NCBI RefSeq assembly: GCF_001767295.1
Contig: NZ_CP014944.1
Location: forward strand, 1,116,001 to 1,180,000
DNA length: 64,000 nucleotides
Reading direction: 5' to 3'
Origin: Colwellia sp. PAMC 20917
Lineage (GTDB): Bacteria; Pseudomonadota; Gammaproteobacteria; Enterobacterales; Alteromonadaceae
In this document: in pieces, positions 26,796-47,888 of the stretch
Numbering within the stretch: position 1 is the first letter of the stretch
How the letters are laid out: every line of letters begins with the position of its first letter
Translations under genes and position numbers: made by a program
Notes under the pieces: model-generated
The model's database searches: none
The model's input: only the letters and a program-made list of their open reading frames with translations
Told to the model about the DNA's origin: nothing

Positions 26796-27152
26796 TCACG
26801 ATTCAAAATAGGTATTGGCCGCCCAGCCGATCGCTTCCGTGATGGTAAAAGCGGTCGTTGCATTCAGTGAATTGCCCCAGCCCGGTATCCAACCGATTAA
26901 AAACTGTGAAATGGCGCGCCCGCCATAACTGGCTGTAAAAACTAATATTAAATCAGTGGCTGCAGTGCGTGTTATCGCAATGCCATGTTGGTCAGCGATA
27001 GCGACAATCATCGCTGTTTGAAAACCAGCAATAACTGGCATATCAGCACCAGGAAGTTGGGCAAGCCCCGCGCCGACTAATGCCGATGAAGTTGCTGCAC
27101 CATGAATAATTACGCCGACTTTCTTTGTGCTCGTTTTCGCTTGAGTAGTCAT
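26796..27152 (-). CDS. DUF697-like small membrane-associated protein
   Basis: A 118-residue hydrophobic, Ala/Gly-rich protein (GAATSSALVGAGLAQLPGADMPVIAGFQTAMI). The IPGAD-like and MIVAIADQHGI patterns resemble the helical DUF697 (YcjF-type) domain found in GTPase-linked membrane proteins. Two or three membrane-associated helices are likely. It has a good ribosome binding site (GGAG) and a palindrome ACAAGCTTGT 70 bases upstream. Its codon and base composition look GC-richer than the neighbouring DNA. Function unknown; family call by eye. Confidence 0.6.
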   Translation of the reverse strand: MTTQAKTSTKKVGVIIHGAATSSALVGAGLAQLPGADMPVIAGFQTAMIVAIADQHGIAITRTAATDLILVFTASYGGRAISQFLIGWIPGWGNSLNATTAFTITEAIGWAANTYFES

Positions 27153-27221
27153 AACTCGCTCCTTAAGGGATAAAATTTTCTAAAACAGAGTATGCAGTAA
27201 TTTGAAGCATGGGCAGTCCAA

Positions 27222-27231
27222 ACAAGCTTGT
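27222..27231. promoter_or_regulatory. Palindromic operator-like site 1, ACAAGCTTGT
   Basis: A perfect 10-bp palindrome 70 bases upstream of the start codon of the DUF697-like gene. Same sequence as at 30719, 32017 and 37610. Confidence 0.55.
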
Positions 27232-27305
27232 CGAGCAAGACTTGATCCGAAGACCTTTATATTAATGAATCAATACCTGTAATGACGATATTACGTAGTC
27301 CGTTC

Positions 27306-27833
27306 TCAAAACGGTATGTCGTCAAAGTCATCATAAACAGGCTCTGCCGTTATCGTGCCCCCTGTTCGGGTTGTTTGATTACGTGTATCTGTATTTTTAG
27401 TGTTAACTTTATTTACAGGTGCATTCGATTGATTACCTGACACAACAGTAGCCTGTGTATTTACATATGTAGTTTGACTACCATTTTCTTCACGTTTACT
27501 GTCAAGCATTTGCATTTGGTTGGCGTTTATCTCGGTTATGTAACGATCAAAACCACTTGCGTCTTGCCATTTACGTGTTTGCAAACGACCTTCAACATAT
27601 ATTTTTGAACCTTTCGTCAGGTACTTACCCACAATGTCAGCTAAATACCCAAACAAAACCACTCGATGCCATTCCGTTTTTTCACGTAATTGTCCGGTAC
27701 TTTTATCTTTCCACGATTCAGATGTTGCAATAGATAAATTTGCTACAGCAGCACCGTTAGCAAGTTGTTTAAGCTCTGGTGGTTGCCCTAAGTTACCAAT
27801 CAATATCACTTTATTAATGCCTTTACTCACCAT
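27306..27833 (-). CDS. ssb: Single-stranded DNA-binding protein
   Basis: A 175-residue SSB. The OB-fold spans residues 4-110 ([46 protein letters not shown]). A Gln/Asn/Thr-rich linker and the acidic tip DDFDDIPF, which recruits partner proteins, follow. AGGAG precedes the ATG. It is probably a second, element-borne copy, since it is next to a DinG-like helicase and a Toprim protein rather than uvrA. It follows the small gene at 27858 by 24 bases in the same direction. Confidence 0.95.
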
Positions 27834-27857
27834 AATGTTGTCTCCTAATTATTAACG

Positions 27858-28169
27858 TTAATGTGTATGTTTTCTTTGAACTGTTGGGCTATAAACTGAA
27901 AGTACTTCACCTAACTCTATGACTTGCCCTCTTTGCCAAAGCGCCTCGCCGTTATATTTAAAACCAATGACCTTGTAGGCCACTGATGATTTCTTTTTAC
28001 TTATGGAAACTTGATCCCAATATTCGCCATCAAGCCATACAACTTCATGCATTTTAGGATCAGGGCAAGCATTAACCATGCGCTGTTGCCACTTAGACAA
28101 TTCTCCCTTTCTACCTAAAGATTTTGGGGCCCATTGCTTGCTGTTTCTTTCTTCAAAAATATAAGACAT
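27858..28169 (-). CDS. Hypothetical small protein upstream of ssb
   Basis: A 103-residue protein starting MSYIFEERNSKQWAPKSLGRKGELSKWQQRM. It is basic at the N terminus and beta-rich after it, with a WLDGEYWDQVSISKK segment. No family is recognised. AGGTGA lies before the ATG. It is probably co-transcribed with ssb. The palindrome at 28252 lies 83 bases upstream of its start, so that site would serve both genes. Confidence 0.65.
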   Translation of the reverse strand: MSYIFEERNSKQWAPKSLGRKGELSKWQQRMVNACPDPKMHEVVWLDGEYWDQVSISKKKSSVAYKVIGFKYNGEALWQRGQVIELGEVLSVYSPTVQRKHTH

Positions 28170-28251
28170 AAAATCACCTGCTAATAAGTAAAAAGAATGT
28201 GTCCGTTTCAGTGGGTTTATAATAATGAAGTTTTAACGAAATTTTGAATTC

Positions 28252-28261
28252 GCAAGCTTGT
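28252..28261. promoter_or_regulatory. Operator-like site 2, GCAAGCTTGT
   Basis: The 8-bp palindrome core CAAGCTTG with one outer base different from the other copies. It lies 83 bases upstream of the small gene that precedes ssb. Confidence 0.45.
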
Positions 28262-28293
28262 GTGCAATTGTGCTATTACTACGGTTAATTTTT

Positions 28294-30585
28294 TCAGCGT
28301 TCAAATTGAAAATCTGGCGCTTTATACATAGGTAAACATTGTATTAACTGGGCGCCGTAACGCTGTGTATTTACGCGAGAATCTAAAATGACCACTTCGC
28401 CATGATCTTTTTCAGATCGGATCAATCGGCCAACACTTTGAATAAGTTTTTGTGAACATAACGGCAACATTTGCTTAATAAAAGCTCTCTCATTCTTCGC
28501 CTCTAAACACATGGTTTCGTATTTAAATAGTGGCGTTGATAAAAGCGGAAAAGGTAATTTAGTGATCACCACGCACGTTAAATAATGCTCAGGTAAGTCA
28601 ACACCTTCAGACAATCCGTCAACGCCAAATAAAATAGAAGTACTTCCATTATCAACATTTGCTTTATGCTGTTTAATTAATTCACTTTTACTGTGACTGT
28701 GCTGACGTAATATCAGCTTTTTTATTGTTGGAGGGCAAAGCTCATAAGTATTTTCTAATGCTTTTTTAGAAGTAAATAACACTAAAATGGCCTTATGCCT
28801 TGCCATTAATGGCATTAACTGGTTTGCCACAACCTTATTATGCTGTGGATCATTTGGGTTACCAGAACGAATAGGCGCACTTAACTGTGTGTTGTTATAG
28901 TTGAAAGGAGAGCTAAACAACTTCACCACATTATTAGGTTGGCGTTTATCAATAGCGAGTTCATTCAGAAATCCGTCACAACTGCCTAAGCGCTCTAACG
29001 TAGCGCTGGTAAGTACTACAGAATAATATTTTTTAGCAAAATACTCTTGAAAGCAAAAACCAACATTTAGCAAGTTACCATGAAATTCAAAATACGTGCC
29101 GTCTTGTTTACTTTCAGTACGAGTGATCCACCGAGCAACACCCGACTCTACTTTCGCTTTCTGCCCTTGTATCTCGGCAAAACTCGTATAGTAAGTTAAA
29201 CAAATAAGTGCATTGTTAACTTCCTGCTTTAAGGTATGTAAGTTCATCACTATGGTTTGCTTAAACTTGTCGGCTTTGTTTGATGAATCATTAAAATATG
29301 TTTCAGAGCTTTCATTGTTTTTTTTGCACACTGTATTCAACACGCTATATACAAAAATCAATTCCAGAGAGCACTCTTTAATCAACGTAGTTAATGTAGT
29401 ATTCATACTTGAAGGCGGCATTACCCAGGCATCTTTATCATCAAACTGCTTTACTTCACCGCGTAACACATTGAAATTGTTTTTTAAAAAATCATTTAAG
29501 GCAAGTACCCTTTTAATTGCGCGCTCGCATCCTCCTACCAGAGAACTTATTTCTGACTTAAGTGATTGAGCCTCATGCTGTTGCCCTGTTAATTGAGCAA
29601 AACCAACAAATTTAGTTGTTTTTTTCAACATTGCTGCCGGTTTTGTTAATAACTTAGTAAAGCGACCTAAAGAAAATCCGGCTTCGTTAGCATCTCGTAA
29701 TACGGATGGAAAACGGTGGCCCTCATCAATAACTAATAAATTGTCACCAAAACCACGCTCAGAAAAGGTTGAATGTCCGCCTAAAGTGGTACGAGATAAA
29801 AGCGCATGATTGGTAATAATAATATTCGCAAGTTGCACTTTTTTGCGCTGAATATAAAATGGACAAATGTCTGATTTGTTACATTTTTTATTACCTGGAC
29901 AATGGTTTACGTTACGGTTAACCTTAGATATAATTTTGCTATTTAGTGGTCTTACACTTTTATCTAAATCACCATCAAAAATATTATTTATAAAATCATT
30001 TTGCAGCCCATTAATGGCTCTTTTTTCATCTGAAGATATCTGTGTTTGTTCATCAATATCACTAAAAAAGTCTTGATTTTGATCAGCATCAACATTCATT
30101 GTTGAAGCAAGTGCATTAGTCGCACGTACTGGGCAAAAATAATGCCCAGCACCTTTTGCCACTTCAAAGGTTAATTCAGGGGCTAAATGAGCAATTAATT
30201 CGGGTAAGTCTTTTTCTTCTAATTGTGTTTGTAAAGCAACGGTATAGGTTGAAATAACCAGTTTCGTATTTTTTTGACTAAGTAGCGGTAATGCTCCTAA
30301 TACATAGCTCATTGTTTTACCAATTCCAGTTCCTGCTTGGGCTACTAATGTTTGCTTATGATAATTAGCACTAGCACAGGCTTTTATAATATCTTTTTGG
30401 CTGTTTCTAGACACAAAGCCAAGTTTTTTATTTGATAAATCTTCATAAAGATCCATCGCCTTTGTTTTAACTTCATTCACACATTCATAAGCTGCGGGAG
30501 TAATATCAGTACCACGACTTGGCTCGTTAAACTGTTTGCCAGAGCCGGTAATACTAAAAATATTATTAGATGATAACGAATGCAT
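28294..30585 (-). CDS. DinG/XPD-type ATP-dependent helicase
   Basis: A 763-residue superfamily 2 helicase. Walker A is AQAGTGIGKT near residue 84, the DEGH box is in LLVIDEGHRF, and motif VI is in QSVGRLIRSEKDHG. Cysteines around HYFCPVR and CPGNKKCNKSDICPF form the Fe-S site typical of DinG/XPD. It unwinds DNA 5' to 3' if it behaves like the family. A DinG relative is a hallmark of type IV CRISPR, but no csf genes are present. It is grouped here with ssb and a Toprim protein, an arrangement of mobile-element DNA maintenance. The palindrome at 30719 lies 134 bases upstream of its start. Confidence 0.9.
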   Translation of the reverse strand: MHSLSSNNIFSITGSGKQFNEPSRGTDITPAAYECVNEVKTKAMDLYEDLSNKKLGFVSRNSQKDIIKACASANYHKQTLVAQAGTGIGKTMSYVLGALPLLSQKNTKLVISTYTVALQTQLEEKDLPELIAHLAPELTFEVAKGAGHYFCPVRATNALASTMNVDADQNQDFFSDIDEQTQISSDEKRAINGLQNDFINNIFDGDLDKSVRPLNSKIISKVNRNVNHCPGNKKCNKSDICPFYIQRKKVQLANIIITNHALLSRTTLGGHSTFSERGFGDNLLVIDEGHRFPSVLRDANEAGFSLGRFTKLLTKPAAMLKKTTKFVGFAQLTGQQHEAQSLKSEISSLVGGCERAIKRVLALNDFLKNNFNVLRGEVKQFDDKDAWVMPPSSMNTTLTTLIKECSLELIFVYSVLNTVCKKNNESSETYFNDSSNKADKFKQTIVMNLHTLKQEVNNALICLTYYTSFAEIQGQKAKVESGVARWITRTESKQDGTYFEFHGNLLNVGFCFQEYFAKKYYSVVLTSATLERLGSCDGFLNELAIDKRQPNNVVKLFSSPFNYNNTQLSAPIRSGNPNDPQHNKVVANQLMPLMARHKAILVLFTSKKALENTYELCPPTIKKLILRQHSHSKSELIKQHKANVDNGSTSILFGVDGLSEGVDLPEHYLTCVVITKLPFPLLSTPLFKYETMCLEAKNERAFIKQMLPLCSQKLIQSVGRLIRSEKDHGEVVILDSRVNTQRYGAQLIQCLPMYKAPDFQFER

Positions 30586-30718
30586 ATAAGCCCCTAAAAA
30601 GATAAAAATTTATTGCGCGATTACGCATTACTGGTTACTAACAGACAATATTTAGTTCTACATCGCTCTTGTATTCAACATGAGTGATTATATTCTTTTA
30701 TATCGTTTTTGGACTTTA

Positions 30719-30728
30719 ACAAGCTTGT
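30719..30728. promoter_or_regulatory. Operator-like site 3, ACAAGCTTGT
   Basis: A perfect copy of the palindrome, between the Toprim gene stop and the dinG-like start, 134 bases upstream of the latter. Confidence 0.5.
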
Positions 30729-30742
30729 GTGATTTTCTGAGT

Positions 30743-31858
30743 TCAGAGTCTCGAAATTAACACATCGCCAATTTGATTATTCATGGCAGATAACCCTTCT
30801 AAACATAATAAGTCGTTAAAATCTGTTGGTTTTCTGCCTAAACTGGTGAAGTGAAACCTTGGACCTTGAACAATGTCGTCGCACTGTTTTGCCTTCATTG
30901 CGGCTTGACGACCAACATTTCCTACTTTTTGTTTCCACACATCTTCATCACAAAAAATAACAACCGATTTTTTTATATTTTTACGTACTGGTAATAAATT
31001 ATTAGCACTTAGCACTATGCGTATTTCACCCGGCCAAACTAGGCCAAGCGACAAGCCCGTAACCACGCCTTCACACAAAGCAATAGGAAGGTGAGCAAAT
31101 TCACTACACGCCGATACTTTGATATAACTCCCAGTAAAAACACCTATTTTTTTAGCAAAATGAAATTTTTTATCTTCATTTTCCGTATTTATTATTTTAT
31201 GAAATCCACTATGTTGGTGCTGGTCATGATAAAGCGGAAAAAGCAGAGTATTAGCCGTGCGTCTAACATTTACACGCGCAAGTAACGTAGGGCTTGCATG
31301 TGACATTAGCCTTTGCTTAAGCCAGACGTCTTGTATGGTTAATGGGTTAGCTATGCGATAATTTTCTTGTAAATTAATAAAGCGATATAAACGCTTTTTT
31401 TCTTCAACCGCATCTGTTGGTATAGTACTGCTTATAAAAGATTTAGCTTTTGTTACTACAAGCTGTTTAGACATGGTTCCAAAAGAGCCATTGGCTTTTT
31501 TTTCATATTGACTTGCTGAGCTATCAACCGTGTTTTTTTTTAAACTATTCTGTTCTTTTAGCCACGTTAACCCATTAAATTCAGATGTTAAGCCACCATG
31601 CTTAAAAGTTGAAAAACGTAAAAACGGCCAATACTCGCCGCTGTTTGTCTGATTAATATGCAACAGAACACTGCATGCCCCTCTATATTTTTTATGTATT
31701 ACCGGTACGCAGCTACCTTTCAACAAAGCACTACTAGCGGGAAGCAATTGCAAAAGCGTACTGGCATCAATGCCAACTTCTTTAGCAATAGCAATAATTG
31801 TGTAGATGGCGCTAGCAATAATAGACAACGCGTCTGTAGGTGTTCTGTAATTATGCAT
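30743..31858 (-). CDS. Toprim-domain primase-like protein
   Basis: A 371-residue protein. The C-terminal part is a Toprim domain: Glu in LPIALCEGVVTGLSLG, the DxD-like FCDED, and the GRKPTDFNDLL ending typical of phage and plasmid primase-helicase Toprim proteins. The N-terminal third is reminiscent of the P4-type primase N terminus, but the zinc-finger cysteines are missing. It probably makes primers or acts in mobile-element replication. It is divergent from cas2, with operator-like site 4 in the shared intergenic region. The start at 31858 has no strong Shine-Dalgarno sequence. Confidence 0.75.
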   Translation of the reverse strand: MHNYRTPTDALSIIASAIYTIIAIAKEVGIDASTLLQLLPASSALLKGSCVPVIHKKYRGACSVLLHINQTNSGEYWPFLRFSTFKHGGLTSEFNGLTWLKEQNSLKKNTVDSSASQYEKKANGSFGTMSKQLVVTKAKSFISSTIPTDAVEEKKRLYRFINLQENYRIANPLTIQDVWLKQRLMSHASPTLLARVNVRRTANTLLFPLYHDQHQHSGFHKIINTENEDKKFHFAKKIGVFTGSYIKVSACSEFAHLPIALCEGVVTGLSLGLVWPGEIRIVLSANNLLPVRKNIKKSVVIFCDEDVWKQKVGNVGRQAAMKAKQCDDIVQGPRFHFTSLGRKPTDFNDLLCLEGLSAMNNQIGDVLISRL

Positions 31859-32016
31859 AATTAATCAAATACCTTATTCATTTAATTTCACCTCGACATA
31901 AAACCTAATAAAACAATTACTCATATCAATTTCATTACTTAGATGAATTGTTTTTGGAGGCGCTATTTATTTAACTTGTTTAAATAATACAAAAAACATT
32001 AAGTTGGGTTGGGGTC

Positions 32017-32026
32017 ACAAGCTTGT
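32017..32026. promoter_or_regulatory. Operator-like site 4, ACAAGCTTGT
   Basis: A perfect copy in the divergent region between the Toprim gene (159 bases from its start) and cas2 (105 bases from its start). It could control either or both. Confidence 0.55.
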
Positions 32027-32062
32027 TAAATTTTTTAAAAATAGGTTTACATTTATTATTGT

Positions 32063-32115
32063 AGGGGGGAACTCCCCCTCTTTATAAATTACGGTTTCAC
32101 ATATTAATGTGTGAA
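32063..32115 (+). promoter_or_regulatory. Hairpin and palindrome just upstream of cas2
   Basis: Two structures in 53 bases: a GC stem AGGGGG-GAACT-CCCCCT at 32063-32079 followed by CTTT, terminator- or attenuator-like, and an imperfect palindrome TTCACATATTAATGTGTGAA at 32096-32115. Together with site 4 they suggest that adaptation gene expression is controlled. Confidence 0.45.
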
Positions 32116-32130
32116 GCTAAGTGAGGTATT

Positions 32131-32409
32131 ATGAGAAAGAAGCTTTATATATGTTGTTACGATATTAGCTGTAATAAAAGGCGTAAAAAAGTATTAACAG
32201 CAGTGCAAAAACAACAGGTTGGTGGACAGTATTCAGCCTATGAATGTTATTTAACACTTAGACAAAAAATACAATTTGAAAAACACCTCAACAGTCTTGT
32301 TGATCAATGTGACACAGTAAAATTACAAATTATTCATGATGTATCGAACATTATTATTTTGGGTGTGGCAAGTGCGCCGGTTAATGCTGAGTACATTTAT
32401 TTCGGCTAA
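32131..32409 (+). CDS. cas2: Cas2 (first copy)
   Basis: A 92-residue Cas2 with the N-terminal strand KLYICCYDIS, whose Asp is the conserved acidic residue, and the ferredoxin-like fold pattern. In the Cas1-Cas2 complex the dimer bridges two Cas1 dimers during spacer integration. The gene starts an adaptation set cas2-cas1-cas2. The SD-like AGTGAGGT is near the start. It has little similarity by eye to the second Cas2 at 33516, so the two are not a recent duplication. Confidence 0.85.
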   Translation: MRKKLYICCYDISCNKRRKKVLTAVQKQQVGGQYSAYECYLTLRQKIQFEKHLNSLVDQCDTVKLQIIHDVSNIIILGVASAPVNAEYIYFG

Positions 32410-32440
32410 TCGTTTTTTAAGCTGTAACGAGGAGTAACGT

Positions 32441-33430
32441 GTGGAAACAATATTTATAGACAGAAAATCAACTCAACTAAAGTGTAATCAAGAACGCTTA
32501 TACATCAGCAAAAGTGTAGGTAAAGACCAAGCTAAAGAAAGTAATGCAATGTCGAGTATTCCTCTGAGTCATTTACGCTCGTTAGTGATCAGCTGTGACT
32601 GCGCGTTGTCATCAGGAATGTTAAGGCAACTGGCTAAGTTTGACGTATCACTGATTTGTTTAAACAACAGAAACCCTGAAGCTAGCTTTATAAGTGTTAA
32701 TGAGAGCCACGGGAATGTGCTAAGAAAAATGAATCAATACTACTTATTAAGTTGTCAAAACTTACGTAGCCGATTTTCAGCCTTAATTGTTAAACGAAAA
32801 ATTAGTGCGCAGCGCACTTTATTGAAGAGCCTAAGTGATCATCGAAAAGAGCTTGCGGGCCCTTTATTTTTTGCCAACAAAACACTACGCGAACAACAAA
32901 TAAAGCTTAATAGCCAAAAAATCAGCGTTAATGAAATAATGGGCATAGAAGGCTATTCATCTAAAGTATATTTACAGGCATTCAAGCGCGCATTTCATTC
33001 AGAGCTAGAATTTACCAAACGCACTAAACGTCCGCCTAAAGACCCGGTGAACGTAATTTTATCGCTTAGTTATACGTTATTATATTACGAAGCACAGCGT
33101 GCGTGTCACGGGCAAAGCCTAGACCCAATGATACCTATTCTTCATTCCACTAGTTATGGTAGAGCTTCACTTGCTTGCGACCTACAGGAATGTTTACGTC
33201 CTGATGTAGATCATTGGGTATGGCAACTATTCCAACAAAGAATATTGCGCTTAGACCATTTTAATAAAGTCGACAATGCTTGTATTTTAAATAAAGCCGG
33301 TCGTAAACACTTTTACCAAGCGCTGCCTGATGTAATGACGCTATGGCGTAAAAAGTTAAGACGACACGCGCAATTTCTAGCACGCATTATTGACAGTACG
33401 TCTGAGTTTAATCAATCACAAAAGTTTTAA
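32441..33430 (+). CDS. cas1: Cas1 integrase
   Basis: A 329-residue Cas1. Metal-binding residues are Glu170 in IMGIEGYSSKVYLQAF, His235 in PILHSTSYGR, and Asp247/Glu250 in CDLQECLRPDVD. The start is a GTG with GAGGAG upstream. It catalyses spacer integration at the leader-proximal repeat. It is not fused to a reverse transcriptase, unlike some marine type III Cas1 proteins. It lies between two cas2 genes, 31 bases after the first and 85 before the second. Confidence 0.95.
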   Translation: METIFIDRKSTQLKCNQERLYISKSVGKDQAKESNAMSSIPLSHLRSLVISCDCALSSGMLRQLAKFDVSLICLNNRNPEASFISVNESHGNVLRKMNQYYLLSCQNLRSRFSALIVKRKISAQRTLLKSLSDHRKELAGPLFFANKTLREQQIKLNSQKISVNEIMGIEGYSSKVYLQAFKRAFHSELEFTKRTKRPPKDPVNVILSLSYTLLYYEAQRACHGQSLDPMIPILHSTSYGRASLACDLQECLRPDVDHWVWQLFQQRILRLDHFNKVDNACILNKAGRKHFYQALPDVMTLWRKKLRRHAQFLARIIDSTSEFNQSQKF

Positions 33431-33515
33431 TACACTCTTTAACGATAGTTATATCAAATCAATTTATGCCGTTTTCACAACAGCAAACTAATATAAAAAA
33501 TAAAAAGGTAGACTG

Positions 33516-33791
33516 ATGCAAAAATCCTATTTGATATGCTACGACATACGTGATGCAAAGCGATTATCAAGGGTACATAAAGTGGTAATTCATTATGGCG
33601 TACCTTTACAATTTTCGGTGTATTACAGCTTACTTGAACAACATACATTAACCGAAATGGTCGAGAAATTAATCGCCATTATTAATGATAAAGAAGACGA
33701 CATTCGTATTTATCCAATACAAGGTACTACCCTTGAAAATTGGCCTAAGCCAGGTTTTAGTGGAAGTGACAAATATTTATTAATAAACTAG
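33516..33791 (+). CDS. cas2: Cas2 (second, divergent copy)
   Basis: A 91-residue Cas2 with SYLICYDIRDAKRLSRVHKVV (written here in two parts: SYLICYDIRD, AKRLSRVHKVV), the Cas2 N-terminal pattern with Asp, then QFSVYYSLLEQ and the DDIRIYPI strand. The sequence looks closer to ordinary Cas2 than the first copy does. It is the last gene before the leader and array. Two different Cas2 proteins for one Cas1 might form a heterodimer or be used for different partners. Confidence 0.88.
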   Translation: MQKSYLICYDIRDAKRLSRVHKVVIHYGVPLQFSVYYSLLEQHTLTEMVEKLIAIINDKEDDIRIYPIQGTTLENWPKPGFSGSDKYLLIN

Positions 33792-34009
33792 TGATATATA
33801 TTGAAAAAAAACCATGAATTTAATAAGATAACTAAGTTATGACAGTATTGTTTACGGACTTTATATATGAATTTTTATGCATAAAATTTTTATACATGAA
33901 CCTTATGAAATCAAAATAAAACAAATTCACATCAACTTTGCATTAACGATTGAAAATTGTAAGACCTATTTTAATCGAATGATAAGTATAAAGAAAACAA
34001 ACGATAGGC
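33792..34009 (+). promoter_or_regulatory. CRISPR leader
   Basis: 218 very AT-rich bases between the second cas2 and the first repeat, with no gene. The opposite end of the array has the degenerate repeat, so this is the leader side where transcription and spacer insertion start. An exact promoter was not assigned. Confidence 0.75.
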
Positions 34010-35649
34010 CTCAGAACAACACCCTGCTAAAAAAGGGATTAAGACCCGCTAGTGGCGATGTGTTGTTTGCTGTGTCGAGCTCAGAACAACACCCTGCTAA
34101 AAAAGGGATTAAGACTTGCGCCTGTTTGTTTGAGATACGTCTCTGCTTACCTCAGAACAACACCCTGCTAAAAAAGGGATTAAGACCTGTAAGCGTAGAC
34201 GCTAACTGGTTTAAATAAACCTCAGAACAACACCCTGCTAAAAAAGGGATTAAGACTTGAGATGCGACGTTGTTTGCGTAGTGCTTGGACCCTCAGAACA
34301 ACACCCTGCTAAAAAAGGGATTAAGACTGCCGCTACTTCTACGAGTGCGCCTGATGCTCTCAGAACAACACCCTGCTAAAAAAGGGATTAAGACACTTTA
34401 CCGCGAATCATTTGAACGCTTTTTTCTGCTCAGAACAACACCCTGCTAAAAAAGGGATTAAGACATATCACACTGTTAGGTGCAAATAGAGTCTTATCTC
34501 AGAACAACACCCTGCTAAAAAAGGGATTAAGACATGTTTCTATATCAAACATTATGTTATTTACTTTCTCAGAACAACACCCTGCTAAAAAAGGGATTAA
34601 GACATGCGAAGATAGATTTGATTGTTGCGAACATAGCTCAGAACAACACCCTGCTAAAAAAGGGATTAAGACTTCTTCTGTGATTATGAATACGTTTGCT
34701 ATTGTTCTCAGAACAACACCCTGCTAAAAAAGGGATTAAGACGTGATACCGCGAGCGTGGTGGATGAACTCAACCACTCAGAACAACACCCTGCTAAAAA
34801 AGGGATTAAGACTATGGTGGACGCTGGACTATACATGAATTCGCTCAGAACAACACCCTGCTAAAAAAGGGATTAAGACTGCCATTTGACCACCTTTGAC
34901 ACTGAGTTCGCCCTCAGAACAACACCCTGCTAAAAAAGGGATTAAGACCGACTTAAGAGATGCTACATTCTCACTGAACTCTCAGAACAACACCCTGCTA
35001 AAAAAGGGATTAAGACTCACTGAACTGTTCACACACTATGAAGACTTCATCACCTCAGAACAACACCCTGCTAAAAAAGGGATTAAGACAATTTGTATAT
35101 CTTCTATGTACTCAGCTTCTCTAACCTCAGAACAACACCCTGCTAAAAAAGGGATTAAGACCTACTATGCTTGGTTACTCTTAAGCCTGATGATCTCAGA
35201 ACAACACCCTGCTAAAAAAGGTATTAAGACGACGTTGTTTGCGTAGTGCTTGGACCTCTTCAAGGCCCTCAGAACAACACCCTGCTAAAAAAGGGATTAA
35301 GACGAGTTAACTCTGGTGCTGGTGCTGCTGTATTTGTCTCAGAACAACACCCTGCTAAAAAAGGGATTAAGACTATTGGCATACACGATGCTCAAGCTCC
35401 TCTACTATCAGAACAACACCCTGCTAAAAAAGGGATTAAGACCTGGCTGTTGCGTAATACCGAACAGCTTTCCTCCTCAGAACAACACCCTGCTAAAAAA
35501 GGGATTAAGACAACTCAGGAATGTCACCATCTTCCGCAAGCTCACTCAGAACAACACCCTGCTAAAAAAGGGATTAAGACCAGTCGTAAAAGTCGTCCCA
35601 ATTTTCGGCTTGTCTCAGAACAACACCCTGCTAAAAAAGGGATTGTACA
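34010..35649 (+). CRISPR. CRISPR array, 24 repeats and 23 spacers
   Basis: The repeat is 36 bases, beginning CTCAGAACAACACCC and ending GGGATTAAGAC. Spacers are 31-37 bases, mostly 33-34. Repeat 18 (35195) has GGTATT instead of GGGATT. Repeat 21 (35407) has A at its first base. Repeat 24 (35614) loses the consensus after GGGATT, which marks the distal end. The CCCT...AGGG segment in the repeat can form a short stem for Cas6. Two pairs of spacers overlap in sequence: 4 with 18 (26 bases) and 14 with 15 (10 bases). The array serves the type III-D operon downstream. Confidence 0.98.
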
Positions 35650-35675
35650 GCGCAATAAATTTAAAGGGCAACACT

Positions 35676-35768
35676 ATGATGTTGTTAAAAAATAAAAGAC
35701 AACAGTCTTATTTAACAAGTCCTATTGGTATGTTGTGGGGGGTTACTTACCTTGCTAAAAATAATTAA
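35676..35768 (+). CDS. Very small possible gene after the array
   Basis: A 30-residue frame starting MMLLKNKRQQSYLTSPIGML, with AAAGGG about 9 bases upstream. It begins 27 bases after the last repeat. No family is recognised and expression is uncertain. The basic start and short hydrophobic centre are all that can be said. Confidence 0.3.
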   Translation: MMLLKNKRQQSYLTSPIGMLWGVTYLAKNN

Positions 35769-35800
35769 TCGCACTTGGAGAAACATAATTAAAATGGGTT

Positions 35801-35810
35801 ACAAGTTTGT
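35801..35810. promoter_or_regulatory. Operator-like site, one mismatch (ACAAGTTTGT)
   Basis: A degenerate copy of the palindrome, 129 bases upstream of the 24-residue frame at 35939. Included because it has the same kind of position as the perfect copies. Confidence 0.3.
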
Positions 35811-35938
35811 GAAAAAGACTGATATTTAATAACAAGTTATATACTTGTAATTGCCAATATATGGCTAAGGCTAATGCCGGATATTAAAAATGATGATCTT
35901 ATTTTATTAATTAATAAACTCCCCATACTGGAGAGAAT

Positions 35939-36013
35939 ATGCTGAATTTACTTAAATTTGTTGCGTTTATTTTTGCTTGCTTTGTAATGTTAAAACTTAT
36001 GTCTATTTTTTGA
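35939..36013 (+). CDS. Possible 24-residue membrane peptide
   Basis: A short frame, MLNLLKFVAFIFACFVMLKL then MSIF, with GGAGAG 5 bases before the ATG. It is almost entirely hydrophobic and would span a membrane once. It lies between the array and the CARF-nuclease gene. A toxin-like or membrane-effector role is speculation. A chance frame cannot be excluded in this AT-rich DNA. Confidence 0.35.
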   Translation: MLNLLKFVAFIFACFVMLKLMSIF

Positions 36014-36409
36014 ACATAAAGTTGCTATTTATATTGTGCGTAATAGGAGCCGACTATAAATTTTTTAGTGTGTTGACATCTTTTATTGTTTTTAAGTGAC
36101 ATTATTATCTTCCCTATTCAATATAATGAAAGTGACTATCTCTAAATACCATTCTGCTTACAGAAGTAATGGATCGTTTATTTTTGCCAGCGGATATTTT
36201 TCATATACCATTTAAAAATTTAAAATATTATCAATTTTTTCGTTAGATTTACCTCTTTTTTACACTCTAATTACGTCTAATTTTTCATTTAATCATTATC
36301 ACTTCAAATTGTTTCAATAGCCTTTCGCTTTAGTATGCAAGCAGATAGTATACACATCAATAATACCAAGTTAATTTAAAGCTCAACTTTTATATAAAAG
36401 GAACTTACA
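36014..36409. other. Intergenic before the CARF nuclease gene
   Basis: About 400 AT-rich bases with no gene seen. It is expected to contain the promoter of the gene at 36410. Confidence 0.4.
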
Positions 36410-37603
36410 TTGATAATTCATATAAATTTAATTTCTCATCAGTTATTGCCTAATGTTATTGGTACGTTTAGTAACACTGATAAAGAAATGAAAATTATTT
36501 TAGTATTAGGTGATAACAAGCTAAAAGAGAAAGCAGTATTACTCGAACATTTTTATCGAAATAAAGGTATTGCTAATATTGAAACCATTAATTGCCAAAC
36601 CAGTACAGACCATGCAAAACTTTTTGTACGGGCCGAAGCTTTATTTGAACAATTGAGGTTTCAATACCCTGATGCAATGATTGCGGTAAATGCAACTGGC
36701 GGAACAAAACCTATGTCTATCGCTTTCACTCAGGTTTTTGATAACTTAGCTGAAAAATCTATGGTGTTTTACACCGACACGATAGATAAACAAAATACTA
36801 TTTTAACCAACCCTCATAAAAATAAGTTCACGCCATTACCTTATGCCAATGTGTTGAATGTTCATGACTATTTATATTTAAATCAGTTCAATGTGAATAG
36901 TGAAGTGAATGAACATTGCCGTGAACACGACAATATTATGGAACGCCGCTCTAGCACTGGTTTTTTATTAGAACTGTGCAAACGCGAAGCGAATTTAATT
37001 TCTATGTTAAACGGCATTTCGGCTCAAACAGATTTTGGCAGTAACAATAAAAGCTTTAATGCTGTGGTTGCACAGGTGCCAAAGTTTAAAAGTATTGTGA
37101 ATTGTTATCAACAACTCGAAATTGCCAACTTAGTAACCTTCAACGAATGTGAAGCTACCCTTACTTTTACGTCAGAAGATGCAGCTCGTTATATTGGCGG
37201 TGCTTGGTTTGAAGAGTTTGCTTATTTAACCGCTGTTGATGCCGGTATTGATTATGTTTCAACAAGTGTAAATGGCCATTGGTTAGATAAAAACAATACT
37301 GAAAGCTCGGTAAGTAACGAGCTTGATCTTGTTCTGGTACATAATAACCAAATGATGCTTGTTGAATGTAAAACCAGCAACTGGAAAGAAGCGGGTAAAG
37401 GACAAAATGTTGCTTTAAAACTTGAAAGTTTAATGCGTAACCTTGGCGGTAGCCACGCCAAAGCGATATTGTTAAGTGTATTTGAGTTAAATGACCATAC
37501 GCATGATCGTGTGAAAAATTTAAATAATGTTACTCCCTTATCTGGCAGTGCTATTCATGGCCTAGCTAATCAATTAAAAACGTGGAAAGCAAAGGTAAGC
37601 TAA
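36410..37603 (+). CDS. CARF-domain nuclease, Can2/Card1 type
   Basis: A 397-residue type III effector. The N-terminal CARF domain has the signature NATGGTKPM at 94-102 for binding cyclic oligoadenylate. After a linker with a winged-helix-like part comes a PD-(D/E)xK nuclease: Glu268/269 in WFEEFAYLTAV, Asp306 in NELDLVLV, and Glu319-C-Lys321 in LVECKT. This is the DUF1887 architecture of Card1/Can2, which nick DNA and cut RNA when activated. The start is a TTG at 36410 with AAAGGAA upstream. It is separate from the cas10 operon and in the opposite direction. Confidence 0.9.
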   Translation: MIIHINLISHQLLPNVIGTFSNTDKEMKIILVLGDNKLKEKAVLLEHFYRNKGIANIETINCQTSTDHAKLFVRAEALFEQLRFQYPDAMIAVNATGGTKPMSIAFTQVFDNLAEKSMVFYTDTIDKQNTILTNPHKNKFTPLPYANVLNVHDYLYLNQFNVNSEVNEHCREHDNIMERRSSTGFLLELCKREANLISMLNGISAQTDFGSNNKSFNAVVAQVPKFKSIVNCYQQLEIANLVTFNECEATLTFTSEDAARYIGGAWFEEFAYLTAVDAGIDYVSTSVNGHWLDKNNTESSVSNELDLVLVHNNQMMLVECKTSNWKEAGKGQNVALKLESLMRNLGGSHAKAILLSVFELNDHTHDRVKNLNNVTPLSGSAIHGLANQLKTWKAKVS

Positions 37604-37609
37604 TTCTTC

Positions 37610-37619
37610 ACAAGCTTGT
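37610..37619. promoter_or_regulatory. Operator-like site 5, ACAAGCTTGT
   Basis: A perfect copy of the palindrome, 7 bases after the CARF-nuclease stop and 102 bases upstream of the darT start. Confidence 0.55.
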
Positions 37620-37720: not shown

Positions 37721-38317
37721 ATGGCTTATAATTTTTCTGATGTTACAACCGTTGATCATATGACCCACATAGGAAATTTAGAAGGTATTTTGGCAAACGG
37801 ATTGCTTGCCCATAATAATCCGCATAAGAAAGTAGATATTAGTAATCAAGAAGTAAATGCTAGAAGAAGTGCCCTTGAGCCTATTTACAAAAAGAGCATG
37901 CATGATTACGTGCCTTTTTATTTTAACCCTAAAAATGCAATGTTGTATCGTAATCAGTGCCACTTTAAAAAAGGCGGCATTGTTGTATTGGGTTTTAATA
38001 AAAATATAATTGCAACACCTGGCGCCGTTTACACTAACGGTAATGCATCGCGAAAAGATACTTGTTTTTCTAATGATAAAAAATTTTTAGAGCAAATAAA
38101 TTGGGATTATGTATTTAGCCCTCGCTGGAATTATCAGGGTAATTCTTATGAAGCAATTAAAACAGCTATGATGTCTGAGTTATTAGTGCATGGCAAGGTC
38201 AGCATAGATAAGTTAGAAATAATCTTTTGTGAAACCGAACAAACTAAGCAGTATATTATTAACAATTTGAAGGTTGATGGTATTCGTGTTGAAGTTTGTT
38301 CACATATGTTTTTTTAG
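37721..38317 (+). CDS. darT: DarT-type DNA ADP-ribosyltransferase toxin
   Basis: A 198-residue DarT (DUF4433) protein. NAD-site features are THIGNLEGIL (His16), NARRS, the loop YVPFYFNPKNAMLY, and the catalytic Glu153 in MSELLVHGKV. DarT toxins ADP-ribosylate bases on single-stranded DNA and block replication, including phage replication. GAGG precedes the ATG. The antitoxin gene follows after 8 bases. It is placed between two type III CRISPR blocks, with operator-like site 5 in its promoter region. Base specificity cannot be told from the sequence. Confidence 0.9.
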   Translation: MAYNFSDVTTVDHMTHIGNLEGILANGLLAHNNPHKKVDISNQEVNARRSALEPIYKKSMHDYVPFYFNPKNAMLYRNQCHFKKGGIVVLGFNKNIIATPGAVYTNGNASRKDTCFSNDKKFLEQINWDYVFSPRWNYQGNSYEAIKTAMMSELLVHGKVSIDKLEIIFCETEQTKQYIINNLKVDGIRVEVCSHMFF

Positions 38318-38325
38318 GAGTTAGC

Positions 38326-39051
38326 ATGATTATTATTAAGCACGGAAATATATTTTCAACCCAGAGCCAAACAGTTGTTAACACCGTTAATTGTGTTGGT
38401 GTAATGGGTGCAGGCATCGCCTATGAATTTAAATTGAGATACCCAGCAATGTTTGATTTATACCAAGGCTATTGTGCTAAAGGACAATTAACAATGGGGA
38501 CATTATGGATATACAACGACCAAAGAAAGCAAGGTGCTTGCTCAAAGGTTTTAAATTTTCCAACAAAAACACATTGGAAAGATCACTCTTCACTTGATGA
38601 CATTAAATTAGGCTTACAAAAGTTTATCAGCACTTTTAAAGAGAAGGGGATCACCTCTATTGCTTTTCCTTTGTTAGGTGCAAGTTTAGGGGGGCTTAAA
38701 GAGTCTGAGGTGCTGTCTTTAATGAATGAGTACTTAACCGACACGGATATAGATATAGATATAGAAATTTGGTACTTTGATCCCAGTGCAGAAGACGATT
38801 TATATCCTCGCTTTCTTCAAATATTTAATACGTTAACTGATGATGAATTAAAAGTTCAGTCGGGGTTAAATTTAGCCGCTATTAAAAAAATTAAAGTGGC
38901 ACTGAATGAGCCAAATATTAATTCACTTAATGGATTGCTCAGAGTAAAAGGGATAGGTAAAACGACTGTTGAAAAATCGTTTCGTTTTATTATGAACAAC
39001 AAAACTGTTTTAAGTGATGCAACTGAACCAGTTGAACTTAGCTTATTTTAA
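38326..39051 (+). CDS. darG: DarG-type macrodomain antitoxin
   Basis: A 241-residue protein from the ATG at 38326 (AGGAG at 38316), although the frame is open further upstream. The N-terminal macrodomain (about 1-150) has VNTVNCVGVMGAGIA, the ADP-ribose binding loop of DarG. It removes the DNA ADP-ribose made by DarT. The C-terminal 80 residues, LKVQSGLNLAAIKKIKVAL and later INSLNGLLRVKGIGKTTVEKS (shown as LLRVKGIGKTTVEKS), form a helix-hairpin-like domain that probably contacts DarT or DNA. The gene ends at a strong terminator. Confidence 0.9.
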   Translation: MIIIKHGNIFSTQSQTVVNTVNCVGVMGAGIAYEFKLRYPAMFDLYQGYCAKGQLTMGTLWIYNDQRKQGACSKVLNFPTKTHWKDHSSLDDIKLGLQKFISTFKEKGITSIAFPLLGASLGGLKESEVLSLMNEYLTDTDIDIDIEIWYFDPSAEDDLYPRFLQIFNTLTDDELKVQSGLNLAAIKKIKVALNEPNINSLNGLLRVKGIGKTTVEKSFRFIMNNKTVLSDATEPVELSLF

Positions 39052-39386: not shown

Positions 39387-40553
39387 TTACAAAGCCTTTT
39401 TAGAAAGCACCATTACAGGCTCAACTTTAATCGGCTCTTTAGTAATTAACGTTATATTTTCTGGCGCTATCTTTAAACCGTATAACATTGCAGTTCCGTT
39501 TTCGTCTATTTTTTGAATAGGTTGTAAAATAAAGTTTTCTGCTGAGCGTTTTCCTAGTGCCTTATTGAAAGCCGATTTTACGTTTGTCTTTCTACCGTTA
39601 AAGTAAGTTTGATCCATACCTTTTCTCAAAGGACGATCAACTTTCTCCGTTATACCGTTATTAATTATCTCATAAAAATTTTTAAACGCTTCAGCATACT
39701 CTTTGTCAGGGTGGCCTTCATAAGGAATGCTGACTCCGTTTGACTTTTCTTTTGCTAAGTTTGCAAACCAAGCTAAAAAGGCTATTTCGGCATTCGCCAT
39801 AGGTATATTAATATTATTAGCTTTTACTATTTTCTGTATTAAATTTATCTCTAACTTAGGCGTTTCGTTATAAACATTCATTAACTCAATGGTTTCGGTG
39901 TAATTAGCTTTTCGTTTAATAATGCGATCCGGCATTTCATCACGCATGCGAACAAATGGAATTTCAGCCAATGTTACTTCAGCATTTTTTGCATTAAAAG
40001 AGATGTTATTGAAGTTGGTAACACGTTTATCTTTAAGTGTTGGATAAAAAAAATCTTTTACGTTCTCAAATTCTTCCGTAACTAACACATGTGATAAGCT
40101 ATCTTGAGCACGTCCGAATAAGCTCATTGCATAACCCATGAAAAAAGTCATGGTTTTGCGTCCGCCAGCTAAACTCGCAAAAATATTAACGTTATCCTGC
40201 TCAGTTAGCTCTCTTACATGATTGATTATATAATCAGCTAAGGCATTATGGTCACTTACGTTACGAGCATCAGCAACTTCTTTACCATTACTATCAGGAA
40301 TTACAAATATATTGTCTTTTGTAAATTTTATAGGCGGTAAATTATATTCATTACACAATTGCGTTAATTGTGATGGACTCTCACCATCTTCCATACCTAA
40401 ACTTATCCAGGCTTGATCTCGACCTTTTGATGTGGTAATTATTTGTATCTCATCAATAATTACGTTTTTATTAACGTATAAAGCATATATAGTTTCGGTG
40501 ACAACTTGAGGTGACATTCCGGTGACTGCTAATAAAATGTTATTCTTTTTCAT
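39387..40553 (-). CDS. CARF-domain protein of the NE0113 (TIGR02584) family
   Basis: A 388-residue CRISPR-associated protein, the last gene of the type III operon, 29 bases after cas6. The N-terminal CARF domain starts ILLAVTGMSPQVVTETIYAL and has the signature SLAGGRKTM at 127-135. The C-terminal half is winged-helix-like, ending with YGLKIAPENITL. No HEPN R-x4-6-H motif is found, so it is not a Csm6/Csx1 RNase as such. It may be a cyclic-oligoadenylate-regulated factor or a ring nuclease that switches off signalling. Its real activity is not known from the sequence. Confidence 0.8.
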   Translation of the reverse strand: MKKNNILLAVTGMSPQVVTETIYALYVNKNVIIDEIQIITTSKGRDQAWISLGMEDGESPSQLTQLCNEYNLPPIKFTKDNIFVIPDSNGKEVADARNVSDHNALADYIINHVRELTEQDNVNIFASLAGGRKTMTFFMGYAMSLFGRAQDSLSHVLVTEEFENVKDFFYPTLKDKRVTNFNNISFNAKNAEVTLAEIPFVRMRDEMPDRIIKRKANYTETIELMNVYNETPKLEINLIQKIVKANNINIPMANAEIAFLAWFANLAKEKSNGVSIPYEGHPDKEYAEAFKNFYEIINNGITEKVDRPLRKGMDQTYFNGRKTNVKSAFNKALGKRSAENFILQPIQKIDENGTAMLYGLKIAPENITLITKEPIKVEPVMVLSKKAL

Positions 40554-40582: not shown

Positions 40583-41452
40583 TTATTCGATTAACTGGTA
40601 CTTGCCTAAACCGAAAGTTGTTTTTCCACCAATACTTAACTGCTCACCTATTTGTAACCATGGTAAGGCTTGTGCTATTTCACCATAATAACTGACCTGG
40701 CCTTTTAACCCACCAAACGGGAGTTGTCTTTGTTCTTTTAACGAAAAACGTTCCCAGTTTTCAAAGTAAATATGGTCACTTTGTTCATGCTCACCTAATA
40801 CGGGTAGTTCTTGATAAAGTGCTCTAAGAAGTTCTGGTTCATCGCAAACCCAAAACTGGCAAAGTTGACTAAAGCGACGAGATATTTGCTTTAGTAGTAG
40901 GGGTAGGTTAGGCGCTTGGTTTTGTAGTATTTTCCCGTGAAATTTTAAACGAACAGGCGTAATAAAGTTAACCGCTAGTTCTCGTTGTTCAAAAGCGTCG
41001 GGGCTAATAGTTAACCAATCAAGCAAACTCGTTATATGAATGCCCGCTTTGATTTTTCCCGGTAATAATGAGCTAACGCTGATCAAAGAAAAAGGTGTTT
41101 TTTGAGAGCCAAAACCTAACTTTTGTCCATACTCAAGCGCCTTAAAAACCGTAGGTGCTAGTTGTGTTATCTGTCCAATAAGGACAATATCGAAGTAATA
41201 AACTTCTTTTGCTTGCCAGTGCGTTTTGTGGTCTTCATTAGGGCATATAATATAGGGCTTAGGTTGCTGGTTGTCGTGCTCACCGTATAAAGCAAAAAAA
41301 GCACGTTCATCAATATGCTTTACTGCATGCCCTAACCAACCATGTAACATTGAGCCTTTAAAAGCGGGTAAAACAGTACTTTGCTTAAACTGAATATAAA
41401 TGCGCAGTTTAAGCAAGTCGCATTGTTGGGCGAGTAAGGTTAGTGCTTGCAT
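40583..41452 (-). CDS. cas6: Cas6 crRNA-processing endoribonuclease
   Basis: A 289-residue Cas6. The C-terminal half has the RAMP pattern and the glycine-rich tail LSIGGKTTFGLGKYQL, with GLKGQVSYYG before it. It cuts the array transcript in the repeats. The ATG at 41452 sits in a TGATG with the stop of the previous gene; the frame also allows a TTG one codon earlier. It is the only processing enzyme seen in the locus. Confidence 0.85.
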   Translation of the reverse strand: MQALTLLAQQCDLLKLRIYIQFKQSTVLPAFKGSMLHGWLGHAVKHIDERAFFALYGEHDNQQPKPYIICPNEDHKTHWQAKEVYYFDIVLIGQITQLAPTVFKALEYGQKLGFGSQKTPFSLISVSSLLPGKIKAGIHITSLLDWLTISPDAFEQRELAVNFITPVRLKFHGKILQNQAPNLPLLLKQISRRFSQLCQFWVCDEPELLRALYQELPVLGEHEQSDHIYFENWERFSLKEQRQLPFGGLKGQVSYYGEIAQALPWLQIGEQLSIGGKTTFGLGKYQLIE

Positions 41453-43671: not shown

Positions 43672-44198
43672 TATTTTCCTTCCTTAATATCGTTATTTAA
43701 AGTATTAAACCCTAAAAACTGTTGGCATATAGACAACCATCGTCCTTCATTAACGCCTTCGTTTTCAAGCTTCCACCATAAACGATAATTTGCACTTACC
43801 GCCTGCTCTTTAAGGTTTTTGCGAACAATAAGCTTTTGTTCGGTAAAAAATTGACTCTCGCTTTGCTTTTCGTTATTGCTTTCTTCAACAATAAAAGTAC
43901 TCAACTGGTAGATATCCCCCTGCTGCAATTTAATATGCAAGCTATGGTTTTTAGCATTACAATATTGCGCTTCTATTATGTAAGGCTTGCTAGGTACTTG
44001 GGCTGAAACAACCAGTTCATCTGTGTATTGCACCCAGCCTTGGGTAGCTGAGAATTTTTCAATAGCTTGCATTAATTCGCTTAGGCACACCATGCTTGCA
44101 TGCATGGTTAACTTTGCTGAAGACACGTTAGGCAGTTCTAACTCAGAGATATCAGTTTTAAGTTCATTGTACTGCGTTATTGATTCACTTAGGCTCAT
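43671..44198 (-). CDS. Csx19-like type III-D subunit
   Basis: A 175-residue protein between the two large RAMP genes, where csx19 (TIGR03984-type) lies in III-D operons. Beta-rich N-terminal two thirds, then YRLWWKLENEGVNEGRWLSICQQFLGF, a Trp-rich end. The sequence is not strongly recognisable and the call is mainly by size and order. It overlaps both neighbours by 1-4 bases. Confidence 0.55.
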   Translation of the reverse strand: MSLSESITQYNELKTDISELELPNVSSAKLTMHASMVCLSELMQAIEKFSATQGWVQYTDELVVSAQVPSKPYIIEAQYCNAKNHSLHIKLQQGDIYQLSTFIVEESNNEKQSESQFFTEQKLIVRKNLKEQAVSANYRLWWKLENEGVNEGRWLSICQQFLGFNTLNNDIKEGK

Positions 44199-47261: not shown

Positions 47262-47888
47262 TTATTGTTCCTGCTTCACGTTAACAATCACTTTACCTAA
47301 ACCTCTATGACGCTTAGCACCTATTTCTGTAATAAAACTAACAACTTGTGTTAACCACAAGGTGAGCTTCTCATCAAGTACGTCTTTATTATTTAAGTAG
47401 CCTATATGACATGTATTTACTGACACTTGTGTGGTTAATACCATTGGTACACAAACTTCCATGCTGCGTAAGCTGGTATTTTCAGCAACACCGGTTTCAT
47501 CGTTTATAGCGGTAGCATAGGTTACTTTATAGAGCTTAGATTTTGCTTGGGGGGTTTTTATTAAATAGTTAATTTCTTGTGACGATAAAACACCACTACT
47601 TATTTGCAATGCGCCTTGCTCTGACGTTCCGGCTTTACCTTCATTACCAAATAACACATCGACTAATGTTTCGGTGTTTTTGTCATTCTCATGGCTAAAA
47701 TCACTAAACCAGTTGTTTTTTTCAGCTCGAGAAAATGCATCGCGCAGTAGGCCTTTTATACTTTTACCTGGTAAATAAGGTAAATAATCGCTGTTTTTAA
47801 GCACTAAAGCATCGGCATAAGCACCACCTTCTTGGCCTGAGCCAATGTGCCAGTAGCTTTGAATATTAAATTTCATATTAAAAATCAT
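47262..47888 (-). CDS. csm3: Cas7 (Csm3-like) backbone subunit
   Basis: A 208-residue single-domain RAMP. YLPYLPGKSIKGLLRDAF is the typical Cas7 thumb motif. Asp26 in AYADALVLK lines up with the catalytic Asp33 of Csm3, so target RNA cleavage is probably retained. The C-terminal GAKRHRGLGKVIV is the G-rich loop. It starts in the TAATG with the cas10 stop and ends directly before csx10. Confidence 0.87.
   Translation of the reverse strand: MIFNMKFNIQSYWHIGSGQEGGAYADALVLKNSDYLPYLPGKSIKGLLRDAFSRAEKNNWFSDFSHENDKNTETLVDVLFGNEGKAGTSEQGALQISSGVLSSQEINYLIKTPQAKSKLYKVTYATAINDETGVAENTSLRSMEVCVPMVLTTQVSVNTCHIGYLNNKDVLDEKLTLWLTQVVSFITEIGAKRHRGLGKVIVNVKQEQ

What the first reader, a model, noticed from the sequence alone, without database searches (positions are those of the whole stretch)
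27222..37619. A shared palindrome, ACAAGCTTGT, links DNA-maintenance, CRISPR adaptation and DarTG genes
Perfect copies lie at 27222, 30719, 32017 and 37610, a one-base variant at 28252, and another at 35801. All are intergenic and 70-160 bases upstream of a start codon. My rough estimate for a 10-mer of this composition is well below one chance copy in 64 kb. One further perfect copy was found, inside dpdK. The pattern suggests one regulator controlling the whole 27-38 kb block, meaning it behaves as a single element. No copy precedes cas10.
Basis: partly seen in the sequence, partly recalled or inferred. Interest (0 to 1): 0.8.

Follow-up and report, generated by a model that had tools for sequence, protein, structure and literature searches.

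The report
Type III CRISPR activator's DNA switch
A short mirror-image DNA sequence sits in front of several phage-defence genes in this bacterium and its relatives, and it looks like the docking site of a CRISPR-linked protein that would switch those genes on when infection is sensed.

Summary
The palindrome is real and far above chance: 5 perfect copies in the window against 0.04 expected. The 4 perfect copies in the 27-38 kb block are intergenic; 13 of 14 copies outside the window lie inside ORFs. A diverged Colwellia locus keeps it in 4 of 4 shared promoters.

New here: its centre lies 31-33 bp upstream of a -10-like hexamer at 17 of 18 site-orientations in three genomes (0 of 5000 permutations), and no -35 is evident. 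That is the layout of a promoter needing an activator.

The likely activator is the block's NE0113-family protein (39387-40553), a CARF sensor domain joined to a predicted OmpR/PhoB-like winged helix. CAAGCTTG is the commonest 8-mer upstream of 28 NE0113 genes (13 of 28), with similar -10 spacing, and recurs in three of eight newly read plasmid loci.

Proposed: type III alarm -> NE0113 -> induction of adaptation, helicase, SSB and DarTG genes. Binding and signal are inferred. Some NE0113 loci lack the site; some NE0113-less type III loci carry it. 'Single element' is not shown.

The parts
27222..27231 (-). operator copy ACAAGCTTGT before the 118 aa ORF; -10-like CATACT at 27189-27194 (- strand)
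28252..28261 (-). operator copy GCAAGCTTGT before the 103 aa gene and ssb; -10-like TATTAT at 28219-28224
30719..30728 (-). operator copy before dinG-like gene; -10-like TATAAT at 30687-30692
32017..32026 (.). operator copy of a divergent promoter: TATTAT at 31984-31989 (to Toprim, -) and at 32054-32059 (to cas2, +), each 32 bp from the centre
35801..35810 (+). operator variant ACAAGTTTGT after the CRISPR array, pointing towards card1; only a poor -10 (TATATA at 32)
37610..37619 (+). operator copy before darTG; -10-like TAAACT at 37647-37652
39387..40553 (-). NE0113-family protein: CARF domain plus predicted OmpR/PhoB-like winged helix; proposed activator
   Evidence: PF09623, model, profile
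26796..27152 (-). 118 aa ORF, no family match; predicted target
27306..27833 (-). ssb; predicted target
   Evidence: PF00436
27858..28169 (-). 103 aa gene conserved in related loci, no family match; predicted target
28294..30585 (-). DinG-like helicase (type IV DinG profile in PADLOC); predicted target
30743..31858 (-). Toprim protein (Toprim_3 just under the Pfam cut-off); predicted target
32131..33791 (+). cas2-like, cas1, cas2; predicted targets
   Evidence: Cas2 PF09827; 32131 and 32441 homologous to annotated cas2 and cas1 of pMC64A
36410..37603 (+). Card1-like CARF nuclease; possible target of 35801
37721..39051 (+). darT and macro-domain (DarG-like) gene; predicted targets
40583..49663 (-). 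cas6 and effector run starting with cas10 (GGDD at residue 329); no operator upstream in the window

Best explanation
The palindrome (core CAAGCTTG, longest form TTCACAAGCTTGTGAA) is the operator of the NE0113-family CARF-winged-helix protein encoded at 39387-40553. A dimer is proposed to bind about 44 bp upstream of transcription start, where a -35 would sit, and to recruit RNA polymerase to promoters that have a -10 but no evident -35 (class II activation). The CARF domain is expected to sense a nucleotide messenger made by Cas10. Target detection would then induce SSB and the 103 aa protein, the DinG-like helicase, Toprim and Cas2-Cas1-Cas2 (from one divergent promoter), and DarTG. Shown by sequence: placement, conservation, spacing, lack of a -35, enrichment near NE0113 genes. 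Inferred: binding, activation rather than repression, the messenger, and the physiological role.
For: Conserved in 4 of 4 promoters shared with G206. -10 at 31-33 bp from the centre at 17 of 18 site-orientations, 0 of 5000 permutations; 2 of 30 at copies outside the block. No -35: 0 of 18 above the background 95th percentile. NE0113 C-terminal part: predicted bb-aaa-bb winged helix; nine best PDB matches all OmpR/PhoB-type, none significant alone; profile hits outside NE0113 that were examined (5 of 8) are all OmpR-type response regulators. CAAGCTTG is top of all 8-mers in 300 bp before 28 NE0113 genes (13 of 28; next palindrome 3); 51 copies in 28 NE0113 stretches, next of 96 matched palindromes 15, median 3; -10 spacing peak at 33 for 16 such sites. 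L137: four sites before NE0113, an OMP-like gene, ssb and a 769 aa gene, no window cas protein matched there. Plasmid loci of Photobacterium toruni and two Allochromatium: 13 passing hits, 12 with an annotated gene 68-137 bp downstream, 0 in reversed sequence. NE0113 was predicted to regulate transcription in 2014 (PMC4012209, passages).
Against: Nine type III-B stretches from 8 genomes without NE0113 still hold 10 copies in 148 kb (0.068 per kb against 0.120), and 6 of 9 contain the core against 23 of 28, Fisher p 0.37. Aeromonas media and Halomonas NE0113 loci lack convincing sites, as do 5 of 8 further plasmid loci. 15 of the 28 NE0113 genes have no exact core within 300 bp, the window's own among them. 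35801 has a poor -10. The winged-helix fold match is weak by E-value.
Confidence: 0.78

Rival explanations
1. The palindrome is an activator site, but another regulator binds it (a host factor, a WYL protein or a different CARF-HTH), and NE0113 is only a fellow member of the regulon.
For: Copies exist in type III-B loci of genomes without an NE0113 match, 7 of 10 in one genus, one just before cmr1; some NE0113 loci lack the site.
Against: CAAGCTTG is the commonest 8-mer before NE0113 genes; L137 has it before NE0113 and ssb with no window cas protein matched; a family-wide host regulon is unlikely, since TTCACAAGCTTGTGAA occurs in 5 of 395 family genomes and, outside G206, 3 of the 4 are in ORFs.
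Confidence: 0.15
2. NE0113 binds the palindrome as a repressor that is released by the messenger.
For: Autoregulated sites are common for repressors (general knowledge).
Against: The site lies upstream of the -10 at the place of the -35, and no -35 is evident at the 18 site-orientations, so the promoters should be weak without help.
Confidence: 0.12
3. The palindrome is a maintenance or partition site of an integrated element (ParB/KorB-like), not a promoter element.
For: Several dispersed copies beside ssb, helicase and Toprim genes; one copy in G206 lies between convergent gene ends.
Against: Fixed distance to a -10 and position before gene starts in several lineages.
Confidence: 0.03
4. Chance or word bias (the core holds a HindIII site).
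For: With one mismatch allowed the window excess is modest (4 of 100 shuffles).
Confidence: 0.005

Closest known systems
Csa3 (CARF-HTH transcription factors, mostly of archaea)
   Same: CARF sensor plus C-terminal DNA-binding domain; reported to regulate CRISPR adaptation and DNA repair genes (PMC9704534, passages). Csa3 2wte is among the Foldseek matches of the NE0113 model (E 6.7e-5).
   Different: Csa3 is tied mainly to type I-A; NE0113 is another CARF family with an OmpR/PhoB-like winged helix in bacterial type III loci, with a CAAGCTTG operator and a -10-spaced promoter; its targets here include darTG.
NE0113 family (PF09623, TIGR02584; NCBI name 'ring nuclease Csm6')
   Same: The protein at 39387-40553 is a member.
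   Different: Transcriptional role was a prediction (PMC4012209, passages); operator, promoter layout and targets are added here. No HEPN match was found.
CalpL-CalpT-CalpS
   Same: Transcriptional response to a type III messenger (PMC11229360, passages).
   Different: CalpL frees a sigma factor by proteolysis; here a one-component DNA-binding sensor is proposed.
OmpR/PhoB response regulators
   Same: Similar predicted winged helix; activation from near the -35 (recalled).
   Different: CARF in place of the receiver domain; inverted-repeat operator.

Membership tests
CARF-wHTH transcription factor (Csa3-like kind) | N-terminal CARF domain | tested here: met
   PF09623 E 1e-40; Foldseek matches to CARF structures, best E 1e-7
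[quoted passage not shown]
   Confident model (pLDDT 88.9); nine best PDB matches OmpR/PhoB-type but E 0.11-2; profile matches to response regulators, best E 9.5e-5 per genome
CARF-wHTH transcription factor (Csa3-like kind) | no C-terminal effector nuclease | tested here: met
   no HEPN or nuclease match
CARF-wHTH transcription factor (Csa3-like kind) | binds cyclic oligoadenylate and DNA | not testable with these tools
   needs the protein
class II activator-dependent promoter | operator at a fixed distance near -35 to -45 | tested here: met
   31-33 bp to -10 at 17 of 18; peak 33 at 16 held-out sites
class II activator-dependent promoter | weak or absent -35 | tested here: met
   0 of 18 above the background 95th percentile
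class II activator-dependent promoter | transcription depends on the activator | not testable with these tools
   no expression data
Csm6 ribonuclease (NCBI label of TIGR02584) | C-terminal HEPN domain | tested here: not met
   only Cas_NE0113 in Pfam for the whole protein; nothing for its C-terminal part at E 5
single mobile element spanning 27-38 kb | defined ends and joint gain and loss | not tested
   relatives differ in order and flanks; ends were not sought

The most novel reading that the evidence does not exclude
NE0113 proteins are a widespread class of bacterial one-component activators that turn the type III CRISPR alarm into transcription through a conserved CAAGCTTG operator, so that detection induces spacer acquisition, DNA processing and a second defence (DarTG): messenger-gated adaptation in bacteria.
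Probability: 0.55. Interest if true: 0.9.

Novelty: new variant of a known kind. Interest (0 to 1): 0.8.

Why it matters
It would give a CARF family that was predicted, but as far as searched not shown, to regulate transcription an operator, a promoter layout and a regulon. It suggests that type III detection in bacteria can switch on spacer acquisition together with SSB, a helicase and a toxin-antitoxin pair, which makes the question of how adaptation is timed directly testable. The operator-to--10 rule can be used to find further genes under the same control near NE0113 genes.

Tried and rejected
Chance and coding bias were rejected. A general host regulon is unlikely: relaxed 14-mer matches in the genome are about as frequent as in the backward control (56/61 against 50/47), and TTCACAAGCTTGTGAA occurs in 5 of 395 family genomes, the four outside G206 being three in ORFs and one intergenic. 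The 103 aa protein as regulator was not pursued: no family match and not detected in the 12.5 kb of L137 (tblastn). Searches with DinG in genome contigs and Cas1 in viral contigs confirmed no relative; Toprim gave three loci, one plasmid over most of its length, only partial Toprim-region matches in other genomes of the class sample, and one partial relative in 80 of 100 further family genomes. My negative control weakened any claim that the site is exclusive to NE0113 loci. The scan (31 loci: 27 hits called non-coding, 30 called coding, 12 in reversed sequence) relies on an ORF mask that is unreliable in GC-rich DNA, so its coding split is not used.

Rows dropped: for I used intergenic copies with at most one mismatch and left out those inside ORFs (817 and 5289 in the window, four in G206) and the G206 copy of L078, found later. 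Orientation followed the downstream gene; for 35801 and G206 52010 it was chosen by eye. Of the 31 genomes with NE0113, 28 stretches from 26 were fetched; some are short (five under 10 kb). The 28 genes include the window's own. Of 10 plasmid records, 8 were fetched anew, A. media was held already and the second Rhodothermus marinus was left out. In one search, 3 of the 13 hits lie inside the 3' end of the preceding annotated gene.
Full report
OBSERVATION. ACAAGCTTGT occurs five times in the window against 0.04 expected and 19 times in the 4.68 Mb genome. Of the 14 copies outside the window, 13 lie inside ORFs and one is intergenic; the window copy at 5289 is also in an ORF. The four perfect copies of the block are intergenic. 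The outside density predicts 0.03 copies in 10.4 kb. With one mismatch allowed the window excess is modest (8 against 3.4, reached by 4 of 100 shuffles).

CONSERVATION. A DinG search of 295 genomes of the family gave two diverged loci of the same kind: G206, whose contig is that of Colwellia sp. 12G3 by record and length, with about 65-88% protein identity, and G159, with about 31-47%. Aligned with G206, the palindrome is kept in 4 of 4 shared promoters (103 aa gene, where the window copy has one mismatch; DinG; Toprim/cas2; DarT); the DinG copy and part of the Toprim/cas2 region stand in otherwise diverged sequence. G206 has further copies before a DUF4145 gene followed by a second NE0113 gene, before a VWA gene (one mismatch), between the convergent ends of the darG and NE0113 genes (one mismatch), and upstream of an LRAT-like gene followed by cas10. 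In the last case the copy falls inside the longest mechanical ORF but upstream of the ATG that I chose. G159 has ACAAGTTTGT-type copies before Toprim, DinG and an 82 aa ORF. A partial Toprim relative in G745 also has one upstream.

PROMOTER GEOMETRY. From the palindrome's centre a -10-like hexamer begins 31-33 bp downstream at 17 of 18 site-orientations in the three genomes. The mean score peaks at 32, and 0 of 5000 random shifts reach it. The exception is 35801. At 32017 both directions have TATTAT at exactly 32 bp, giving a divergent promoter for Toprim and for cas2-cas1-cas2. Among 15 copies outside the block, 2 of 30 orientations score as well. No -35 is evident: 0 of 18 above the background 95th percentile. 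With the usual -10 placement the centre falls near -44, the place of a class II activator (general knowledge).

THE REGULATOR. The main candidate in the block is the NE0113-family protein 39387-40553 (PF09623), the last ORF of the run that starts with cas10. Its N-terminal half matches CARF structures. Its C-terminal part, modelled alone (pLDDT 88.9), has OmpR/PhoB-type regulators as its nine best PDB matches, although none is significant alone (E 0.11-2). A profile of that part, searched in 12 genomes, finds NE0113 proteins and, weakly, 8 other places; the 5 of these that I read are OmpR-type response regulators aligned on the DNA-binding domain (Trans_reg_C confirmed for one). Makarova et al. 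2014 predicted that NE0113 proteins regulate transcription directly (PMC4012209, passages). NCBI's label 'ring nuclease Csm6' is not supported as to a HEPN domain.

TEST IN OTHER GENOMES. PF09623 was found in 31 of 369 genomes of the class; 28 stretches from 26 of them were read. A scan for repeated palindromes gave, in L137 (GC 29%), four non-coding and no coding copies of TGACAAG[CT]TTGTCA-type sites, before NE0113 itself, a gene with a weak outer-membrane match, ssb and a 769 aa gene, each with a -10 at 32-33. A site model from window, G206 and G159 alone scores 8 or more before 12 of 29 NE0113 genes, 11 with rank p under 0.05 in their own locus. In the 300 bp before 28 distinct NE0113 genes (the window's own included), CAAGCTTG is the commonest of 256 palindromic 8-mers (13 of 28, next 3) and of all 8-mers. 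The 28 stretches hold 51 copies, in 23 of 28; the next of 96 composition-matched palindromes has 15, the median 3. For 16 sites before NE0113 genes the -10 distance peaks at 33, then 32 (0 of 5000 permutations). These loci were not used to derive the spacing.

NAMED PLASMIDS. In Photobacterium toruni five ACAAGTTTGT-type sites lie 68-95 bp before annotated genes, one before a small gene followed by NE0113, cas1 and cas2. Allochromatium vinosum and A. tepidum have sites before EcsC genes that precede NE0113 (in A. tepidum with a TnpB gene between) and before SHOCT or PEGA genes upstream of cas genes; A. tepidum also between PcfJ and csx16. In these three loci 13 hits (site-orientations) pass, 12 with an annotated gene 68-137 bp downstream and 3 inside the 3' end of the gene before, and 0 pass in reversed sequence. 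Five other plasmid loci (Vibrio gigantis, Photobacterium damselae, Vibrio casei, Rhodothermus marinus, Pseudoalteromonas donghaensis) gave 0 hits against 2 reversed.

RESULTS AGAINST. Nine type III-B stretches from 8 genomes without an NE0113 match (of 27 with Cmr2_N) hold 10 copies (0.068 per kb against 0.120), and 6 of 9 contain the core against 23 of 28 (Fisher p 0.37). Seven of the ten are in one genus, one of them just before a RAMP gene. So another regulator may share the site, or the gene may be missed there; one of the nine (L145) holds a piece of an NE0113-like protein. Aeromonas media and Halomonas, which have NE0113 and the Toprim gene, lack convincing sites. In the window NE0113 has no site of its own; in Colwellia the cas10 run may have one.

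MECHANISM. Shown by sequence: placement, conservation, spacing, lack of a -35, enrichment near NE0113 genes. Inferred: NE0113 dimers bind the palindrome; binding activates; the CARF domain is gated by a Cas10 product (GGDD present); the outcome is induction of SSB, DinG, Toprim, Cas1-Cas2 and DarTG. The closest known case is Csa3, reported to regulate adaptation and DNA repair genes (PMC9704534, passages).

PRINT. Searches for NE0113, CARF with transcription factor, CARF with autoregulation, CARF-HTH, CARF with transcriptional regulation, and the core sequence listed no paper whose title or abstract start reports this operator; passages were read in five papers. Subscription papers and the 2020 CARF classification are not held, so this is not proof that it is unreported.

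Noticed in passing
37668-37692: The predicted darT leader holds a terminator-like hairpin (fold z-score -2.74); leader and hairpin are almost identical in G206. It may be an attenuator, or card1's terminator.
   Followed up: partly
27306-33791; L049; L051; L053: ssb, 103 aa gene, DinG-like helicase, Toprim and Cas2-Cas1-Cas2 recur together beside type III effectors in the window, G206, G159 and Aeromonas media pMC64A, in different orders: possibly an extended adaptation module.
   Followed up: partly
26360-26625: Short ORFs on the - strand read like a broken WYL-type HTH regulator (by eye; no search made).
   Followed up: no
35939-36013: A 24-codon ORF with a purine-rich stretch before it lies about 130 bp downstream of 35801 (by eye).
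   Followed up: no
49664-51009; L078:2399-3460: Upstream of cas10 the window has 1.3 kb without a listed ORF of 80 aa or more, where G206 has an LRAT-like gene and an operator.
   Followed up: partly
L048:419-3247: G206 has a second NE0113 gene after a DUF4145 gene (weak PADLOC match PDC-M16A) with a perfect operator upstream.
   Followed up: partly
L142, L143, L149: G303 and G566 (one genus) carry CAAGCTTG sites in type III-B loci although PF09623 found no NE0113 gene in them.
   Followed up: partly
upstream of NE0113 genes in the loci: A second 8-mer, GGCCAGAA, is frequent there (10 of 28), unexplained.
   Followed up: no
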